A DNA stretch of 64,000 nucleotides. It comes from Phycisphaerales bacterium. GTDB taxonomy: Bacteria; Planctomycetota; Phycisphaerae; Phycisphaerales; SM1A02. Each line of letters begins with the position of its first letter. Within the stretch, counting starts at the first letter, position 1. The stretch spans positions 62,001 to 126,000 of the forward strand of contig JAQWNP010000001.1 of the NCBI GenBank assembly GCA_029268515.1. Direction: 5' to 3'. Of the stretch, positions 42,579 to 52,539 are shown piece by piece. The notes under the pieces were generated by a model, which was given only the letters and a program-made list of their open reading frames with translations, made no database searches and had not been told where the DNA came from. The position numbers were made by a program, and so were the translations under genes.

Positions 42579-44270
<1,692 letters not shown>

Positions 44271-44306: not shown

Positions 44307-44990
44307 TTAAGTAATATTTTTCGGCATGGTGGCATTCTTGTCCCACATGCGATACCCGCCCAAGAAGGCGTTTTTATTCGCACCACGACGACAACCTTTT
44401 GGCAACTCTTTCAGTTGTTTCGTATTACCGCCGCCTAAAACGATGTACTCCGGCTGAAGTCCATTTTGAAATTGCTTTACAGCACGGCGCACATGCTTAC
44501 TCCACTTACCATGCCCTTTCTCTTCAAGGTAATGCTCACCAAGGTAGTCCTCATAGACGCTACCTTTTTTCCGATAAGGCATATGACCCAGTTCCATAGG
44601 TAGCACTTGGTTCTCTGGCACAACCATGGCAGAACCAAGTCCAGTACCCAATCCGAGAAAGAGCATTTTCCCTCCCTCATAACTTCCCAGCGCCTGCATT
44701 GCGGCATCATTGAGAAGTTTCGTCGGGCAACCAAAAGCTGCTTCGTAATCAAACTCAACCCAGCCACCACCAAGGTTGTAGGGCTCCAAGATTGGCTTGC
44801 TATCGACGATTGGAGCAGGGAGACCAATGGAAACCTGATTCCAGGTCCAACCTTCGGAAAGATTGGCGATATTTTCCATCATTCCCTTCGGCGTAATGTC
44901 CTTACCTGAGGCAAACGCTCTTCGCTTCGTTTCACCCTCAAGCAGCAGTTTTATATGAGTACCCCCGATATCGACTGACAAAGTGCCCAT
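44307..44990 (-). CDS. ppgK: ROK-family polyphosphate glucokinase-like kinase
   Basis: A 227-residue ROK kinase. It has the phosphate-binding loop 'LSVDIGGTHIKLLLEG', catalytic Asp in 'LLNDAAMQALG', 'LFLGLGTGLGSAMVV' and the glucose-contacting 'LELGHMPYRKKG'. The zinc-binding CxCGxxGC motif of repressor-type ROK proteins is missing, as in polyphosphate/ATP glucokinases. The C-terminal 'NAFLGGYRMW' recalls PpgK-like proteins. It should phosphorylate glucose at C6; whether the donor is polyphosphate or ATP cannot be read from sequence. It is shorter than mycobacterial PpgK. Divergent from tkt across a 156-base region containing a palindrome, it heads the ppgK-pgi operon. Confidence 0.85.
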   Translation of the reverse strand: MGTLSVDIGGTHIKLLLEGETKRRAFASGKDITPKGMMENIANLSEGWTWNQVSIGLPAPIVDSKPILEPYNLGGGWVEFDYEAAFGCPTKLLNDAAMQALGSYEGGKMLFLGLGTGLGSAMVVPENQVLPMELGHMPYRKKGSVYEDYLGEHYLEEKGHGKWSKHVRRAVKQFQNGLQPEYIVLGGGNTKQLKELPKGCRRGANKNAFLGGYRMWDKNATMPKNIT

Positions 44991-45146: not shown

Positions 45147-47180
45147 ATGTCGCCAGCGACCAGTTCTCAAGATCAGCAACTTCGCCCAGACCTCATTGTC
45201 AGGTCAAAAGCCACGCCAACACCCCATCCTGAGGGAGAAGAAGGCCTAGGCATCAATGCGATTCGCTTCCTCACAATTGATTCCATTGAAAAAGCCAAAT
45301 CGGGCCACCCAGGGACACCCATGGGGCTGGCACCACTGGCCTACCTGCTCTGGACTGAAATTATGAATTTCGATCCCGCCGATCCGAGCTGGCCTAATCG
45401 TGATCGGTTTATTCTCTCTGGTGGGCATGCTTGCATGCTTCAATACGCCAGCTTGCACCTGGCTGGGTACGACCTAAAAATTGATGACCTCAAGCAATTC
45501 CGACAGTGGGACTCTCGCACCCCCGGACACCCAGAGATGGACCGCACGCCCGGCATCGAGATTAACACCGGCCCCTTGGGCCAAGGTGTTGCCAATGGTG
45601 TTGGCATGGCCATGACAGAACGAATGCTGGCTGCTCGGTTCAATACCGATGACCACACCATTGTTGACCATCACACGTATGTCACCTGCGGCGAAGGCGA
45701 CATTATGGAGGGCATCACCGCCGAAGCGGCTTCTCTCGCAGGCCGACTCGGGTTGAACAAGCTCATCCTCTTCTACGACGACAATGAAATAACGCTTGAA
45801 GGCGCCGCGCCAATTGAACTCAGAGAAGATGTTGCTGGCTGGTATGCCGCATTCAATTGGCACGTGATTGAGATTGCAAATGTCAACGATCTCGAATCGC
45901 TCCGCGCCGCAATTGCTGAAGCCAAATCACAAACTGAAAAACCCACCCTCATTATCGTTCGAAGCCATATTGGATTCGGATCACCAGTCCAGGACTCTGC
46001 AGAGGCACATGGCAAAGCACTTGGCGAAGACAATGCCGAAGCAACTCGCAAGAAGCTCGACTGGCCTTATGGACCATTTGAGATCCCCGAGGACATTTAC
46101 AACCACTGGCATACCAAAGTGGCTAAGCGTGTTGCATCACACGGTGAGTGGAAAAAAGCATTCAAAGCGTATCAAACTGCTCACCCTGAAAAAGCAAGTG
46201 ATTTTCTACGTGTCATGAATGGCGAACTCCCTGACGGCTGGCAAAACGCAAACTTGCCTGACTTCAAGGTGGGCGACAGCCTTGCCACTCGTAAGTCAGG
46301 CGGCGCCTCGCTCAATGCATACGCCGCCAATGTCCCAGAGCTTATCGGTGGTTCGGCAGACGTTGCCCCTTCAACAGATACCAACCTCAACGACAAAGGT
46401 GACATCAATGCTGGGGAGTGGGATGGCTGCAATATTCACTTTGGTGTTCGAGAGCATGCGATGGGCGCCATCTGCAACGGCATGGCAGCCCACGGGGGAC
46501 TGCGGCCGTTCTGCGCCACTTTCTTCCCCTTCAGTGACTACATGCGTGAACCGATTCGTTTAGCCGCACTGATGAAACTACCGGTTGTCTTTGTATTCAC
46601 CCATGATTCCATCGGACTTGGCGAAGATGGTCCAACCCATCAACCGATCGAACATCTGGCGAGCTTCAGAGCAATGCCGGATACCCGTGTTATTCGACCA
46701 GCTGATGCAAATGAATCTGCACAGGCGTGGGCCCAAGCAATTGCACACACCGGCCCCACATTACTGGTCTTATCCCGCCAAGGCCTTCGCATTCTTGATC
46801 CCAAGCTCGTCGATGTTTCAAAGGGCGCCACCGTCGTTGCACCTGGGGACGATGCTGCAATTCTTGCAACAGGATCAGAAGTTCAACTGGCTCTTGACGC
46901 TCGTGATTTACTTGCTGCAAGCGGAGTCAATGCTCGGGTGGTCTCTATGCCCTGCTGCGAGATCTTCCGTGAGCAAAGCAAGGCGTATCAAAATGAGGTG
47001 CTTCCAAAGGGCATGCCGACTTTGGCTGTCGAGGCCGCGGCGCCCACTGGATGGTATGAATTCGCAGATGATGTCATGGGACTAAGACGATTTGGCGCAT
47101 CAGCCCCCGGCGAAATTGTGATGCGTGAACTGGGCTATACACCAGAAAACGTTGCCGCCCGCGTCAATGCATTACTCTAA
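45147..47180 (+). CDS. tkt: transketolase
   Basis: A 677-residue thiamine-diphosphate enzyme moving two-carbon units between ketoses and aldoses. It has an N-terminal extension of about 30 polar residues, then 'IEKAKSGHPGTPMGLAPLAY', 'LSGGHACMLQYASLHL', the thiamine/metal motif 'CGEGDIMEGITAEAASLAG' and 'FYDDNEITLEG'. The pyrimidine domain has 'FGVREHAMGAICNGMAAHG' and 'THDSIGLGEDGPTHQPIEHL', and the C-terminal domain starts near 540. GGAGG lies 5 bases before ATG 45147. It is the first gene of the plus-strand pentose phosphate operon, followed 69 bases later by the rpiB-tal fusion. Confidence 0.96.
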   Translation: MSPATSSQDQQLRPDLIVRSKATPTPHPEGEEGLGINAIRFLTIDSIEKAKSGHPGTPMGLAPLAYLLWTEIMNFDPADPSWPNRDRFILSGGHACMLQYASLHLAGYDLKIDDLKQFRQWDSRTPGHPEMDRTPGIEINTGPLGQGVANGVGMAMTERMLAARFNTDDHTIVDHHTYVTCGEGDIMEGITAEAASLAGRLGLNKLILFYDDNEITLEGAAPIELREDVAGWYAAFNWHVIEIANVNDLESLRAAIAEAKSQTEKPTLIIVRSHIGFGSPVQDSAEAHGKALGEDNAEATRKKLDWPYGPFEIPEDIYNHWHTKVAKRVASHGEWKKAFKAYQTAHPEKASDFLRVMNGELPDGWQNANLPDFKVGDSLATRKSGGASLNAYAANVPELIGGSADVAPSTDTNLNDKGDINAGEWDGCNIHFGVREHAMGAICNGMAAHGGLRPFCATFFPFSDYMREPIRLAALMKLPVVFVFTHDSIGLGEDGPTHQPIEHLASFRAMPDTRVIRPADANESAQAWAQAIAHTGPTLLVLSRQGLRILDPKLVDVSKGATVVAPGDDAAILATGSEVQLALDARDLLAASGVNARVVSMPCCEIFREQSKAYQNEVLPKGMPTLAVEAAAPTGWYEFADDVMGLRRFGASAPGEIVMRELGYTPENVAARVNALL

Positions 47181-47249
47181 GATGACCATTCCTATCAGCC
47201 TTAAAAAATTGCACTACAAGAGATTCAGAATCGCATTAAGGAGCCGCTC

Positions 47250-48785
47250 ATGAAAGTCGTAATCGCTGCTGATCATGCAGGCCTGCCCCTACGGGCGACA
47301 CTTGCTGAAGCAGTTGAAGCCGCAGGCCACGAAGCCGTATTGATGGGTCCCGATGACGGAAAGCCTGTGGATTACCCTGATATCGCAGAGATCGTGTGTG
47401 CTGAAGTCGCCTCGGCTCGAGCAGATCGCGGCATTCTCTTGTGCGGCAGTGGCGCGGGCGTCAGTATTGCCGCCAATAAGTGTCCTGGCGTTCGCGCAGC
47501 GATTGCACATGACACCTACACGGCTCATCAAATGGTTGAACATGACATGGTCAATATCTTGACTATTGGTGCCCGTGTGATCGGGCCAGAACCAGCTAAA
47601 GAAATTGTAACGGCTTTTGTCTCCGCAAAATTCAGTGGAGCTGATCGCCATCGACGGAGGCTTAATAAAGTGCTTGCTATAGAACGCGACGAGATTAATA
47701 ACCCACTACATCAACTTCACAATGTTGGCCAAAGCGTCTGGATGGATAACATTCGTCGCGACATTCTCGACAAAGGCATTCTTGCTCATTACATCGATCG
47801 TTTAGCGATTACAGGGCTCACCTCTAATCCAGCAATCTTCGACAAGGCAATTGCCGATTCGAATCTATATGACTCAGCTATTCAATCACTGATGAAGTCG
47901 GGTACTACTGATCCAGAAGCAATCTTCTTTGACCTAGCGATCGAAGACCTCAGCCGAGCCGCTGAACTTTTTCGCCCCACCTATGAAGGCACCAATACTG
48001 TCGACGGCTACGTCTCTCTTGAAGTGTCACCACTTCTTGCCAATGACACAGCGAGTACTGTTGAACAGGGCAAGGCCCTCTTCGCGCGTGCGGGGCAGCC
48101 AAACCTTTTCATTAAGGTGCCAGGAACGCCAGAAGGCTGCAAGGCCATCGAGCAACTCATCCATGCAGGCGTGAACATCAACGTCACGCTACTGTTCTCA
48201 GTCGATCATTACAAGAAAGCGGCTGACGCTTACATGCGAGGACTTGAGCTACGGCTTAAAGATGGCCTTGATCTTAATGTCGCATCAGTCGGCTCGGTCT
48301 TCATCTCCCGTTGGGACAAGGCCGCAAACCCAAAACTTCCTGAAGACATGCACAACAAACTTGGTGTTGCGATCGGCGAAGCCTGCTATCGAGCCTACTG
48401 CGAAATGGTCGCAAGTGACCGATGGAAGAAACTCGCAGAGCATGGCGGTAACCCACAGCGACTGCTTATGGCAAGTACAAGTGCAAAGGATCCATCCTTA
48501 CCAAGCGGCTTCTATGTCACTGCACTGGCAGCACCCAATACCGTCAATACCATTCCTGAGGCAACACTGACCGAGTTTGGTGAAACCGGTAATGTTGAGG
48601 GCGTACTTAGTCCTGATGGTGGCGATTGCGATGCAACCATGGCCGCACTCGAGAAAGCCGGCATCGACATTCACGCTTTAGGTGAACAACTACAGATTGA
48701 AGGACGTGATTCGTTCAACGAAAGTTGGCACGATCTTATTAAGGCTATTAAGAGCAAGGGGGCGGCACTCGCCGCGACTGCCTAA
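47250..48785 (+). CDS. ribose-5-phosphate isomerase B / transaldolase fusion
   Basis: A 511-residue two-domain enzyme. Residues 1-145 are RpiB: 'MKVVIAADHAGLPLR', catalytic Cys65 in 'GILLCGSGAGVSIAANK', 'ARAAIAHD'-type segment, and 'DRHRRRLNKV' with the phosphate-binding arginines. From about 152 the chain is transaldolase: 'VGQSVWMDNIRRDIL', 'AITGLTSNPAIFDKAI', 'TVDGYVSLEVSP' and Schiff-base Lys289 in 'NLFIKVPGTPEG', then 'SVGSVFISRWD' and 'MASTSAKDP'. There is no stop or frameshift between the parts, and the linker is only about 6-8 residues. AAGGAG precedes the ATG. The enzyme should link ribulose-5-phosphate isomerisation with sedoheptulose/fructose exchange in the non-oxidative branch. 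Confidence 0.95.
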   Translation: MKVVIAADHAGLPLRATLAEAVEAAGHEAVLMGPDDGKPVDYPDIAEIVCAEVASARADRGILLCGSGAGVSIAANKCPGVRAAIAHDTYTAHQMVEHDMVNILTIGARVIGPEPAKEIVTAFVSAKFSGADRHRRRLNKVLAIERDEINNPLHQLHNVGQSVWMDNIRRDILDKGILAHYIDRLAITGLTSNPAIFDKAIADSNLYDSAIQSLMKSGTTDPEAIFFDLAIEDLSRAAELFRPTYEGTNTVDGYVSLEVSPLLANDTASTVEQGKALFARAGQPNLFIKVPGTPEGCKAIEQLIHAGVNINVTLLFSVDHYKKAADAYMRGLELRLKDGLDLNVASVGSVFISRWDKAANPKLPEDMHNKLGVAIGEACYRAYCEMVASDRWKKLAEHGGNPQRLLMASTSAKDPSLPSGFYVTALAAPNTVNTIPEATLTEFGETGNVEGVLSPDGGDCDATMAALEKAGIDIHALGEQLQIEGRDSFNESWHDLIKAIKSKGAALAATA

Positions 48786-48841: not shown

Positions 48842-49858
48842 ATGCAACTGGGCATGATCGGTCTGGGAAGAATGGGCGCTAATATGGTGCGCCGCTTGAT
48901 GAAAGATGGCCATGACTGCGTCGTCTATGACGTAACGGCTGATAATGTCAAACAATTAGCCAGCGAAGGCGCCACAGGTGCAGACAGTCTTGAGGACTTT
49001 GTCAGCAAACTAGATAAGCCTGCTGCATGTTGGCTGATGATTCCTGCTGCATTTGTAGATTCAACTCTTGAGAAATTAGCACCACTGCTCAAAAAGGGTG
49101 ACATCATCGTTGATGGTGGAAACTCGTACTACCGCGACGATGTGGATCGGGCCGAAAAATTGCGCCCGCACGGCATTCACTACGTGGACTGTGGCACCAG
49201 CGGTGGGGTCTGGGGCGAAGATCGTGGCTACTGCATGATGATTGGTGGCGACGATTCTGCTGTAAAGCATCTCGACCCTGTCTTTTCGACGCTGGCACCT
49301 TCAATTGACGAAGCTCCTCGAACACCGGGACGAGAAAACGTCAAAGGCAGTACTGCAGAGCATGGCTACCTACATTGTGGCCCTAATGGTGCCGGGCACT
49401 TCGTAAAAATGGTTCATAACGGTATCGAGTACGGAATCATGGCTGCGTACGCTGAAGGACTCAACATTCTTAAGCATGCAAACATTGGCAAGGCCAAGCA
49501 AGAAGACGATGCCGAGACCACACCACTTCGTGAGCCTAAGTACTACCAGTACGATCTGAATCTCACTGATGTGACTGAGGTATGGCGACGAGGTAGCGTT
49601 ATTGCATCTTGGCTACTCGATCTATCTGCCCACTCCCTTCTCGTCGATCCAGATCTTGAGAAGTTCTCAGGCCGCGTCTCCGATTCTGGAGAAGGCCGGT
49701 GGACACTCATGGCGGCAATCGATGAAGCGGTTCCTGCCCATGTCCTCAGTGCCGCTCTTTACGAGCGATTCGAGTCACGCGGCCAGGCAGATTTCTGTGA
49801 CAAATTACTCTCAGCCATGCGATATGAGTTCGGTGGCCACCTTGAGAAGAAAGCATAA
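48842..49858 (+). CDS. gnd: 6-phosphogluconate dehydrogenase, decarboxylating (short type)
   Basis: A 338-residue enzyme oxidising 6-phosphogluconate to ribulose-5-phosphate and CO2. The dinucleotide loop is '[19 protein letters not shown]'. '[18 protein letters not shown]', '[20 protein letters not shown]' and '[22 protein letters not shown]' are the substrate-site motifs, with the catalytic Lys in 'VKMVHN'. It is the short form (about 300-340 residues, YqeC/GndA-like) rather than the 470-residue type, and this form is often NAD-linked; coenzyme choice here is not determined. AAGGAG lies 8 bases upstream. It lies 56 bases after rpiB-tal and 2 bases before zwf. Confidence 0.95.
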
Positions 49859-49860
49859 CC

Positions 49861-51240
49861 ATGACAAATGCTGCTGATGCCCTGGTGTTCTATGGCGCCA
49901 CTGGCGATCTTGCGCATAAGAAGACCTTCACTGCGCTCCAGGCAATGATCCGACACGGATCACTGAACGTGCCCATCATTTGTGTGGCCACTTCGGACTG
50001 GACGAAGGAGCAGCTTGTGGCGCGAGCTCGCGATGGCATTGAAAAATTCGGCGATGGCGTCGACAAAAAAGCCTTCGCGAAGATGACCGAACTGATGCAG
50101 TATGTTGGTGGCGGTGGCGGCGAAGATGAGATGTACAAAAACCTCGCCACTGTGATGAAACCCTTCAAGCAGCCCATGTATTACTTGGCGATTCCTCCGA
50201 GTGCCTTTGCTGCGGTAGCCGCTGACTTAAGTCAGTATGGACTCGCCAAGAATGCTCGGCTTGTCATTGAAAAGCCATTTGGCATCGATCTTCTTTCAGC
50301 AAGAAAACTGAATGTGGATCTTCATGAGCACTTCCCGGAGTCAGCGATCTACCGAATTGATCACTATCTCGGTAAGGAAGCAACACTGAACATGCTCTAC
50401 TTCAGGTTTGCGAATGCTTTTCTCGAGCCAATCTGGAATCGCAACTTCGTCAAGTCAATCAAGATCACAATGGCAGAAGATTTTGGTGTTGCGGGGCGTG
50501 GCCGATTCTATGAAGAAGCTGGCGCCATTCGTGACGTCGTCCAAAATCACATGATGCAAGTTCTTGGACTACTCACAATGTCTGCGCCTGTAAGCGGGCA
50601 CCATGAAGCACTTCGTGATGAGAAGGTCAAAATTTTCAACTCAATCAAACCACTTGAACCCGAGCATGTGGTACGTGGTCAATTTGAGGGCTACCACGAT
50701 GAAGAAGGGGTTGCTAAAGACTCCCAAATTGAGACGTTTGTTGCTCTAAAACTCGAAATTGACTCTTGGCGATGGGCTGGCGTACCGGTCTTTATTCGTG
50801 CCGGGAAATCACTTCCAGTGACTGCCACTGAGGTCTATGTAGAGTTTAATCGTTCACCTCAAAATGTCTTCCGATCAATGGCCTCAAATCCACGCAACGC
50901 CATCCGTTTTGGCATCAGCCCCAATATTGAAATTGGCATTAATGCCAACGCGAAGAAACCCGGCGAAGATATGGCTGGCGAGAATGTGGAGCTGCTTGTC
51001 TGCGATCATCATGATGACGAGATGACGCCATACGAACGTCTACTTGGTGATGCACTTGCAGGCGACGCCACACTCTTTGCTCGTGAAGATGAGGTTGAAT
51101 CAGCCTGGGCTGTGGTTAATCCAATTCTCGGGAACGCGGTTCCTGTGCACACGTATAAACCCGGTACCTGGGGACCTAAAGAAGCAGAGAAAATTGTCCA
51201 TGGCTATGGTCCATGGCACAATCCGAAGGAATCATCGTGA
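49861..51240 (+). CDS. zwf: glucose-6-phosphate 1-dehydrogenase
   Basis: A 459-residue enzyme taking glucose-6-phosphate to 6-phosphogluconolactone, the entry to the oxidative branch. N-terminal coenzyme loop '[20 protein letters not shown]' has the Rossmann GATGDL. The catalytic signature '[16 protein letters not shown]' near residues 163-178 carries the active His. 'RPTEVYVEF'-type and '[12 protein letters not shown]' segments are present. The length is near the short end for Zwf. It starts 2 bases after gnd, and its stop codon overlaps the next gene (GTGA at 51237-51240), so gnd, zwf and the phosphatase are translated as one series. Coenzyme specificity not determined. Confidence 0.95.
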
Positions 51241-51818
51241 CACTCCAGAGAATTTGGTTGATTCGCCATGGCGAGACTGAGTGGAGCCTCTCCGGGCAAC
51301 ACACTGGCTCTACAGATATTCCCCTCACAGACATTGGTGCCGAACGCGCCCGTCTGCTCAAGGGGCACATGGAAAACCACCAATTTAGTGCTGTATTAAC
51401 GAGCCCACTTCAACGCGCCCAAGAAACTTGCCGACTCGCAGGCTATGGCGATCATGCAGAAATCACTGACGATCTCTTGGAATGGGATTACGGACAGTAC
51501 GAGGGCAAGACCACCGCAGAGATTCAAGAAACTGTTCCTGGGTGGTCGCTATGGACACACCCATGCCCTGGCGGTGAAACGGGTGAACAAGTAGCCACCC
51601 GCGTGCAAAGGGTCATTGATCGAGCGATCGAAATTGGCGGTGACGTTGCTTGTTTCGCACACGGACATGTCTTACGCGTTTTGATTGCAACATGGCTCGA
51701 GATGAATCCTCAATCAGCCAAGTATTTCGCTCTAGGCACAGCATCACTGACTATTCTTGGCCATGAACATGACTATCGTGTTTTACGAGTACTCAACGAG
51801 CAGTGGCATCTCCCCTAA
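51237..51818 (+). CDS. histidine phosphatase family protein (phosphoglycerate mutase-like)
   Basis: A 193-residue member of the histidine phosphatase superfamily: phospho-acceptor His in '[18 protein letters not shown]', '[14 protein letters not shown]', acid in '[17 protein letters not shown]' and second His in '[16 protein letters not shown]'. The family includes cofactor-dependent phosphoglycerate mutases, fructose-2,6-bisphosphatases, TIGAR and SixA-like phosphatases. The short length and lack of the mutase-specific insert favour a phosphatase. GTG 51237 has AAGGA 6 bases upstream and overlaps the zwf stop; an ATG at 51213 would overlap zwf more. Lodged between zwf and pgl, it probably acts on a sugar phosphate, which is inference from position. 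Confidence 0.87.
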
Positions 51819-51849: not shown

Positions 51850-52539
51850 ATGCAAACCGATATTCTCGCCTCACCAGAAGCTGCTGCGGCAGCTGCTGCG
51901 TCTTTTATAGCCAACGCCGCACGACAAGCAATCAAGGAGCGGGACTGCTTTGCTTTTGCTGTGAGTGGTGGGCACTCGCCTTGGATCATGCTTCGTGAGC
52001 TCGGCGAAGAGAAACTTGAATGGTCTAAGATCCATGTTTTTCAAGTTGATGAACGCATTGCACCCAAAGGCGATGATGATCGAAATCTCACCCATCTCAA
52101 AGAGAGTTTGCTTGCAACAGCACCGATCGATCCTCAAAATATTTATGCCATGCCCGTCGATCATGAAGATGTCAACAAGGCTGCTGCTGAATACGGACAA
52201 ACATTGGCTTCAGTATGTGGCTCACCGGTCAAGCTTGATTTAGTACATCTTGGCTTAGGTCCAGACGGACACACCGCTTCATTGGTGCCAAATGACACCG
52301 TCCTTGAGGTCACTGACCGAGATGTGGCGCTGACTGGTGGAACCTACCAAGGGCGTCAGCGAATGACCCTCACCTATCCATGCATTAACCGAGCCAGACA
52401 GATCATGTGGCTTGTCACTGGTGCCGCAAAACAGCCCGTCTTTCCAAAGTTACAAGCCGGCGATCCATCTATTCCCGGTGGCAGAGTTGAGCAAGAGCAT
52501 GCGGTACTGATTGCGGACCGCGACGCAACTGGAACTTAA
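51850..52539 (+). CDS. pgl: 6-phosphogluconolactonase
   Basis: A 229-residue enzyme of the DevB/Pgl family hydrolysing 6-phosphogluconolactone to 6-phosphogluconate, the step between Zwf and Gnd. Motifs are 'CFAFAVSGGHSPWIMLREL', 'VFQVDERIAPKGDDDRN', 'LDLVHLGLGPDGHTASLVP' with the conserved GPDGHTASLFP-type loop, and 'RMTLTYPCINRA'. The length is typical. The ribosome site AAGGA lies about 9 bases before the ATG, 31 bases after the phosphatase gene. It is the last plus-strand gene of the pentose phosphate operon and its stop overlaps by 4 bases, tail to tail, the debranching enzyme gene on the other strand. Confidence 0.95.
   Translation: MQTDILASPEAAAAAAASFIANAARQAIKERDCFAFAVSGGHSPWIMLRELGEEKLEWSKIHVFQVDERIAPKGDDDRNLTHLKESLLATAPIDPQNIYAMPVDHEDVNKAAAEYGQTLASVCGSPVKLDLVHLGLGPDGHTASLVPNDTVLEVTDRDVALTGGTYQGRQRMTLTYPCINRARQIMWLVTGAAKQPVFPKLQAGDPSIPGGRVEQEHAVLIADRDATGT

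What the first reader, a model, noticed from the sequence alone, without database searches (positions are those of the whole stretch)
47250..48785. Single-chain ribose-5-phosphate isomerase B and transaldolase
The frame runs without interruption from a complete RpiB (Cys65, C-terminal arginines) into a complete transaldolase (Lys289), joined by a linker of a few residues. Transaldolase-glucose-6-phosphate isomerase fusions are known, but I do not recall an RpiB-transaldolase enzyme being characterised. A physical link would couple isomerisation of ribulose-5-phosphate to the transketolase/transaldolase exchange, next to a tkt gene in the same operon.
Basis: partly seen in the sequence, partly recalled or inferred. 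Interest (0 to 1): 0.68.

Follow-up and report, generated by a model that had tools for sequence, protein, structure and literature searches.

The report
RpiB–transaldolase fusion with internal start
One bacterial gene encodes two pentose-phosphate-pathway enzymes, ribose-5-phosphate isomerase B and transaldolase, joined end to end in a single protein, and signals conserved at the joint suggest that cells also make the transaldolase half on its own from the same gene.

Summary
Window 47250-48785 (+) is one uninterrupted 511-aa ORF carrying a complete RpiB domain and a complete transaldolase (Tal), both with intact active-site residues. It is the only rpi and the only tal gene in the genome. 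It is not an assembly error: the fusion recurs in 16 genomes of four genera of the family, forms one clade in trees of both domains, and is under purifying selection across the joint.

A separate RpiB–Tal–PGI triple fusion exists in anammox planctomycetes, so RpiB and Tal were joined at least twice. There is essentially no linker.

Just upstream, an Arg codon (AGG) forms a Shine-Dalgarno-like site and is the most synonymously constrained codon of the ORF. The window's genus has lost that site, but a GGAGG plus in-frame GTG lies nine codons upstream and is the ORF's strongest internal start signal. I infer a two-product gene: fusion plus free Tal.

RpiB and Tal do not catalyse consecutive steps, so direct channelling is unlikely. 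No prior description was found in the open-access papers held. No activity was tested.

The parts
47250..48785 (+). rpiB-tal fused ORF, 511 aa
   Evidence: conserved in 16 genomes of four genera
47250..47690 (+). RpiB (LacAB_rpiB) domain, residues 1-147; Asp8, His9, Cys65, Ser67, His98, Arg109, Arg133, Arg137
   Evidence: Pfam; residues aligned to solved RpiB chains 6fxs, 3k7o, 3s5p, 3he8
47700..48785 (+). transaldolase domain, residues 151-511; Asp166, Asn193, Glu258, Lys289 (Schiff base), Thr313, Ser349, Arg354
   Evidence: Pfam and NCBIfam NF002881/TIGR00876 above cut-off; residues aligned to 7bbw and 3r5e
47238..47243 (+). AAGGAG Shine-Dalgarno of the rpiB-tal ORF
   Evidence: sequence; duplex with anti-SD -8.4 kcal/mol
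47656..47672 (+). candidate internal start for free transaldolase: GGAGG (47656-47660), 9 nt, in-frame GTG (47670-47672, codon 141)
   Evidence: -9.5 kcal/mol; the next best internal site of the ORF is -3.5; only 3 of 703 internal ATG/GTG in window genes reach -9.5; synonymous-recoding p 0.0125
47685..47699 (+). position of the ancestral tal start: codon 146 (AGG in 14 relatives, CGC here) to codon 150 (ATG/GTG in 14 relatives, AAT here)
45147..47180 (+). tkt, transketolase
   Evidence: TIGR00232 above cut-off
48842..49858 (+). gnd, 6-phosphogluconate dehydrogenase
49861..51240 (+). zwf, glucose-6-phosphate dehydrogenase
51213..51818 (+). histidine-phosphatase-superfamily protein, start overlaps zwf
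51850..52539 (+). pgl, 6-phosphogluconolactonase
42579..44261 (-). pgi, glucose-6-phosphate isomerase, separate and divergent
44307..44990 (-). ROK-family sugar kinase-like gene
   Evidence: below every NCBIfam cut-off

Best explanation
The gene makes a bifunctional enzyme. An N-terminal RpiB interconverts ribulose-5-P and ribose-5-P, and a C-terminal transaldolase exchanges dihydroxyacetone units between sedoheptulose-7-P/glyceraldehyde-3-P and erythrose-4-P/fructose-6-P. They are joined with no linker, inside a cluster that encodes the pentose phosphate pathway except rpe. The fusion most likely arose once in the ancestor of four Phycisphaerae genera, when adjacent rpiB and tal genes lost the rpiB stop codon in frame with tal. 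The two active sites probably act independently; the benefit is obligate co-production and co-localisation of the sole Rpi and sole Tal, not channelling between them, because transketolase lies between the two steps. In addition, an internal ribosome-binding site and in-frame start at the joint probably still yields free Tal, letting Tal exceed RpiB. In three genera it sits at the ancestral tal start; in the window's genus it has apparently shifted to a GTG nine codons upstream. Shown: fusion, conserved residues, single origin within the family, neighbourhood, codon constraint at the joint. Inferred: both activities, two products, the reason for fusion.
For: ORF and domains. Active-site residues conserved. 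Sole rpiB and sole tal family member, no RpiA, rpe elsewhere. Fusion in 16 genomes of 4 genera and no further case in 400 genomes of the order, 163 genera. One clade for RpiB (99/94) and for Tal (91/76). Purifying selection across the joint. Candidate pre-fusion state in G442: tkt, then rpiB, TGA, 15 nt, GTG tal with rpiB and tal in one frame. Internal start: ATG/GTG at codon 150 in 14/14; Arg146 AGG in 14/14 (60/60 identities between genera against 11.6 expected; the top five of 490 five-codon windows all start at codons 142-146). It is the only fully invariant column of 159 four- or six-fold columns; shuffles reach at most 0.87. The junction site is the strongest internal SD+start of the whole ORF in G000, G459, all six g298 genomes and G519, and ties for strongest in G520. 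Several cluster genes use clear SD sites (tkt, rpiB-tal, gnd). The independently evolved anammox fusion shows no consistent internal start.
Against: No expression, proteomic or enzymatic data. The SD duplex in g5 is weak (-3.2 kcal/mol) and not unusual for those ORFs; G526 is not significant by recoding (p 0.24) and its junction site is not among the best five. For the window's genus the relocated start rests on two related genomes (p 0.0125 and 0.05). The RpiB half falls below the RpiB equivalog cut-off TIGR01120 (118 vs 138.65), so its substrate is inferred from context. AlphaFold failed (pLDDT 37), so domain geometry is unknown.
Confidence: 0.58

Rival explanations
1. Pure obligate bifunctional enzyme: only the 511-aa fusion is made, and the physical link itself (proximity, co-assembly with transketolase) is the benefit. 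The junction codon pattern is a relic or serves something else.
For: In the window's genus the ancestral start and its AGG are gone (codons 146 and 150 are CGC and AAT). The anammox triple fusion, evolved separately, has no consistent internal start.
Against: A relic would have decayed: AGG is kept in 60/60 between-genus comparisons while other Arg columns show 8-35% codon identity. The window's ORF has an exceptional SD+GTG at the joint.
Confidence: 0.28
2. The conserved AGG is a rare-codon pause between domains that lets RpiB fold before Tal emerges, not a ribosome-binding site.
For: AGG is uncommon (36 of 513 Arg codons) and lies exactly at the domain boundary.
Against: AGA is about as rare (31 of 513) but is never used at this position; a start codon (ATG, or GTG twice) is always in frame four codons downstream.
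Confidence: 0.07
3. Assembly or frame error joining two separate genes.
For: Neighbouring lineages have separate rpiB and tal genes.
Against: Sixteen genomes of four genera carry the fusion in one frame with the same joint; the joint is under purifying selection.
Confidence: 0.01
4. The RpiB-like half is not a ribose-5-phosphate isomerase but another LacAB_rpiB-family isomerase or a non-catalytic oligomerisation domain for Tal.
For: Below the RpiB equivalog cut-offs TIGR01120 and TIGR02133, though above the subfamily cut-offs NF004051 and TIGR00689.
Against: Catalytic Cys, His and Arg residues kept; only Rpi candidate in the genome, with no RpiA; located in a pentose phosphate cluster; far below the LacA/LacB cut-offs.
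Confidence: 0.06

Closest known systems
Bifunctional transaldolase/glucose-6-phosphate isomerase (Tal-Pgi; NF007080; Gluconobacter oxydans enzyme of Sugiyama et al. 2003, cited in PMC2248599)
   Same: Tal covalently fused to another sugar-phosphate isomerase of the same pathway
   Different: Partner is PGI, C-terminal to Tal, and acts on the Tal product (consecutive steps). Here the partner is RpiB, N-terminal, not consecutive; PGI is a separate neighbouring gene; NF007080 cut-off not met (364 vs 712)
RpiB-Tal-PGI triple fusion of anammox planctomycetes (found here: L062-L065, L108)
   Same: RpiB directly N-terminal to Tal; tkt upstream in L063; Pfam confirms all three domains in L062
   Different: Independent origin (its Tal nests with tal-pgi genes); extra PGI domain; different joint without a consistent internal start
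G6PD::6PGL fusions of Plasmodium, Giardia, Trichomonas and metazoan H6PD (PMC3148214, PMC10819308)
   Same: Repeated independent fusions of pentose phosphate enzymes
   Different: Oxidative branch, consecutive steps, eukaryotes; PMC3148214 does not mention transaldolase or ribose-5-phosphate isomerase
Bacterial genes with in-frame internal starts giving two products (cheA, infB; own knowledge)
   Same: Full-length protein plus an N-terminally shorter product from an internal RBS
   Different: Here the short product would be a complete separate enzyme whose start codon is the pre-fusion gene start

Membership tests
LacAB_rpiB / ribose-5-phosphate isomerase B | Full-length match to PF02502 and to RpiB subfamily models NF004051 and TIGR00689 | tested here: met
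   158, 169 and 141 bits, all above cut-off
LacAB_rpiB / ribose-5-phosphate isomerase B | RpiB equivalog TIGR01120 (cut-off 138.65) | tested here: not met
   118.3 bits; the wider subfamily models are met, so filed at subfamily level only
LacAB_rpiB / ribose-5-phosphate isomerase B | Catalytic Cys (E. coli Cys66 type), ring-opening His and phosphate-binding Arg residues | tested here: met
   Cys65, His98, Arg133 and Arg137 align with solved chains
LacAB_rpiB / ribose-5-phosphate isomerase B | Ribose-5-phosphate isomerase activity | not testable with these tools
   needs an enzyme assay
Transaldolase, subfamily of TIGR00876/NF002881 | Score above curated cut-offs | tested here: met
   256.3 vs 233.75 and 413.7 vs 367
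Transaldolase, subfamily of TIGR00876/NF002881 | Schiff-base Lys with Asp, Asn, Glu, Thr, Ser and Arg of the active site | tested here: met
   Asp166, Asn193, Glu258, Lys289, Thr313, Ser349, Arg354 aligned to 7bbw and 3r5e
Transaldolase, subfamily of TIGR00876/NF002881 | Transaldolase activity | not testable with these tools
   needs an enzyme assay
Bifunctional transaldolase/phosphoglucose isomerase (NF007080) | Tal followed by a PGI domain in one chain, score above 712 | tested here: not met
   364 bits, covers only profile positions 2-376 of 949; pgi is a separate gene
Two-product gene with internal start | Conserved in-frame start codon preceded by a synonymously constrained SD-like site, in the sister genera | tested here: met
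   14 fused genes of three sister genera
Two-product gene with internal start | Same, in the window's own genus | tested here: inconclusive
   Ancestral site lost; GGAGG/GGAGA...GTG nine codons upstream in both genomes, only two sequences
Two-product gene with internal start | Free Tal protein present in cells | not testable with these tools
   needs western blot, N-terminomics or ribosome profiling

The most novel reading that the evidence does not exclude
A bacterial enzyme fusion that kept its second gene's own translation start: one ORF makes a bifunctional RpiB-Tal and, from an internal ribosome-binding site held by selection on synonymous codons, free transaldolase in extra amount. In the window's genus the start was lost and re-created nine codons upstream. 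The same two enzymes were fused a second time, with PGI added, in anammox bacteria.
Probability: 0.45. Interest if true: 0.6.

Novelty: new variant of a known kind. Interest (0 to 1): 0.5.

Why it matters
Fusions of pathway enzymes are usually read as evidence for channelling. Here two non-consecutive enzymes of the non-oxidative pentose phosphate pathway were fused at least twice in one phylum, which points to co-production or co-assembly rather than direct channelling. Adjacent genes in one frame, a fusion that keeps the old start, and a fusion that has lost it lie close together in one bacterial family, so the steps by which neighbouring genes become fused genes can be tested with ordinary genetics. 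Annotation pipelines would miss a free Tal product. The three-enzyme RpiB-Tal-PGI chain in anammox bacteria bears on how those organisms handle sugar phosphates.

Tried and rejected
Plasmid collection by tblastn: one record covered over 80% of the query (Rhodococcus pseudokoreensis, query 75-508), but its annotation shows an ordinary tal next to a hypothetical protein, not a fusion. Ten literature searches: none found an RpiB-Tal protein; the library lacks most subscription papers. Promoter and terminator scans around the gene: no more than in shuffled sequence. Single origin for window and anammox fusions: not supported by either domain tree. Assembly error: rejected. Very long open frames around Tal in L073 and L074: Pfam finds only the Tal domain. 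Fusions outside Planctomycetota were not surveyed apart from the plasmid collection.

Full report
Observation. Window 47250-48785 (+) is one ORF of 511 codons with an ATG start, preceded by AAGGAG. Residues 3-141 match the whole LacAB_rpiB profile and residues 163-500 the whole TAL_FSA profile, far above the curated cut-offs. NCBIfam places the halves in RpiB subfamily models and in the transaldolase models NF002881 and TIGR00876. The narrower RpiB equivalog is not reached. Alignments to solved chains show conserved catalytic residues in both halves: Cys65, His98, Arg133 and Arg137 of RpiB; Asp166, Asn193, Glu258, Lys289, Thr313, Ser349 and Arg354 of Tal. The cysteine that forms the redox-sensitive NOS bridge in the Neisseria enzyme (own knowledge) aligns with Thr188 here, so that switch is probably absent (alignment to 7oey).

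Genome context. The genome holds one LacAB_rpiB gene, one TAL_FSA gene and no RpiA; ribulose-phosphate epimerase lies on another contig. Around the fusion lie tkt, gnd, zwf, a histidine-phosphatase-family gene and pgl on the same strand, with a ROK-family gene and pgi divergent. The cluster therefore encodes the pathway except rpe. The same kind of cluster surrounds the fusion in the other genera examined; tkt adjoins it in g1 and g298 but was not found beside it in g297 and g5.

Distribution and origin. In a family survey of 181 genomes the full-length fusion occurs in four genera: g1 (2 of 2), g298 (6 of 6), g297 (6 of 9) and g5 (2 of 3). The genomes of g297 and g5 without it gave no match to either half, so they are probably incomplete there. 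The other genera show separate genes or weak or no matches. In 400 genomes of the order no further full-length case appeared. G459 is evidently the genome behind L002, named an uncultured Phycisphaerae bacterium (both contigs are 7198 bases). In the phylum survey of 392 genomes a second group appeared: a chain of about 1097 aa with RpiB (4-142), Tal (159-510) and PGI (599-811) domains. The four triple-fusion genomes tested carry the hydrazine synthase alpha domain, so they are anammox bacteria. Trees of each domain separate the two groups. The window-type fusions form one clade (RpiB 99/94, Tal 91/76); the triple fusions form another (100/99 in both), and their Tal nests among tal-pgi genes. 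RpiB and Tal were thus joined at least twice.

Steps towards fusion. Unfused members of the family that were examined keep tal beside pgi, or rpiB beside tkt, at separate places. In G442 (same family) the order is tkt, rpiB, TGA, 15 nt, then a GTG-initiated tal in the frame of rpiB, so loss of a single stop codon would fuse them; the contig ends soon after and its tal is incomplete. In G255 and in the anammox genome G248, rpiB and tal-pgi overlap by ATGA. Stand-alone RpiB proteins end 16-35 residues from the Arg133 position, so the fused proteins join a natural RpiB end to the natural Tal start with practically no linker.

The joint. In all 14 fused genes of g297, g298 and g5, codon 150 is still a start codon (ATG in 12, GTG in 2), and codon 146, an arginine, is AGG. 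AGG is 36 of 513 Arg codons in the 16 ORFs, and 14 of those 36 are at this one site. Between genera the codon at 146 is identical in 60 of 60 comparisons against 11.6 expected from codon usage. No other codon of the 247 columns tested has so large an excess, and the five most constrained five-codon windows of 490 all start at codons 142-146. It is the only fully invariant column of 159 four- or six-fold columns, while in 300 within-genome codon shuffles no column exceeded 0.87. The site pairs with the 16S anti-SD at -3.2 to -9.1 kcal/mol. AGA, nearly as rare, is never used there, which argues against a mere rare-codon pause. I read this as a retained ribosome-binding site and start for free transaldolase.

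In the window's genus the ancestral site is gone (codon 146 CGC, codon 150 AAT in the gapless alignment). Nine codons upstream lies GGAGG (GGAGA in G459), 9 nt before an in-frame GTG at codon 141. With -9.5 and -6.6 kcal/mol it is by far the strongest internal SD plus start in each ORF (next best -3.5 and -3.3). Only 3 of 703 internal ATG/GTG codons in window genes reach -9.5. Synonymous recoding gives p 0.0125 and 0.05. With two related genomes this is suggestive only. The anammox triple fusion has no consistent internal start at its joints, a useful contrast.

Mechanism. RpiB supplies ribose-5-P; transketolase converts it with xylulose-5-P to sedoheptulose-7-P and glyceraldehyde-3-P; Tal uses those products (established biochemistry). 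The fused steps are therefore not consecutive, and a private channel from RpiB to Tal would need transketolase as a third partner. The simpler reading is fixed co-production and co-localisation of two enzymes that the genome has in single copy, with free Tal from the internal start adjusting the ratio. RpiB is dimeric or tetrameric in characterised members (own knowledge), so the chain is probably at least a dimer; this was not modelled, because AlphaFold on two sequences failed.

Literature. Described relatives are Tal-Pgi (Sugiyama et al. 2003, cited in PMC2248599) and the G6PD::6PGL fusions (PMC3148214, PMC10819308). No held paper was found that describes RpiB-Tal or RpiB-Tal-PGI. The library is open access only, so prior mention elsewhere is possible.

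Verdict. Real, conserved, a new variant of a known kind (pentose phosphate enzyme fusion). The two-product hypothesis and the convergent anammox fusion raise the interest above that of an ordinary domain fusion; both need experiments.

Noticed in passing
L062:4212-7502 (-), L063:3805-7095 (-), L064:4994-8311 (+), L065:1467-4757 (-), L108: Anammox planctomycetes carry an RpiB-Tal-PGI triple fusion of about 1097 aa; other anammox genomes have separate rpiB and a tal-pgi gene, and G122 has a second stand-alone RpiB (L106).
   Followed up: partly
L070:33-935 (-): G442, same family: rpiB and tal separated by one in-frame TGA and 15 nt, a likely pre-fusion state; the tal part is cut short near the contig end.
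   Followed up: partly
L071 about 5132 and L072 about 6290: rpiB stop and tal-pgi start overlap as ATGA, suggesting translational coupling in unfused lineages.
   Followed up: no
window 48842-49858: gnd is 338 aa while its model (PRK09599) is 302 positions and is matched end to end, so it carries extra segments of about 37 aa; G248 gnd has a similar length.
   Followed up: no
window 51213-51818: Histidine-phosphatase-superfamily gene overlapping the zwf end inside the pentose phosphate cluster; also present in the g298 cluster and not seen in the g297 and g5 clusters examined. Its role is unknown.
   Followed up: no
window 44307-44990 (-): ROK-family protein next to pgi, weakly like polyphosphate glucokinase and below every cut-off; conserved beside pgi in all fusion-bearing clusters examined.
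   Followed up: no
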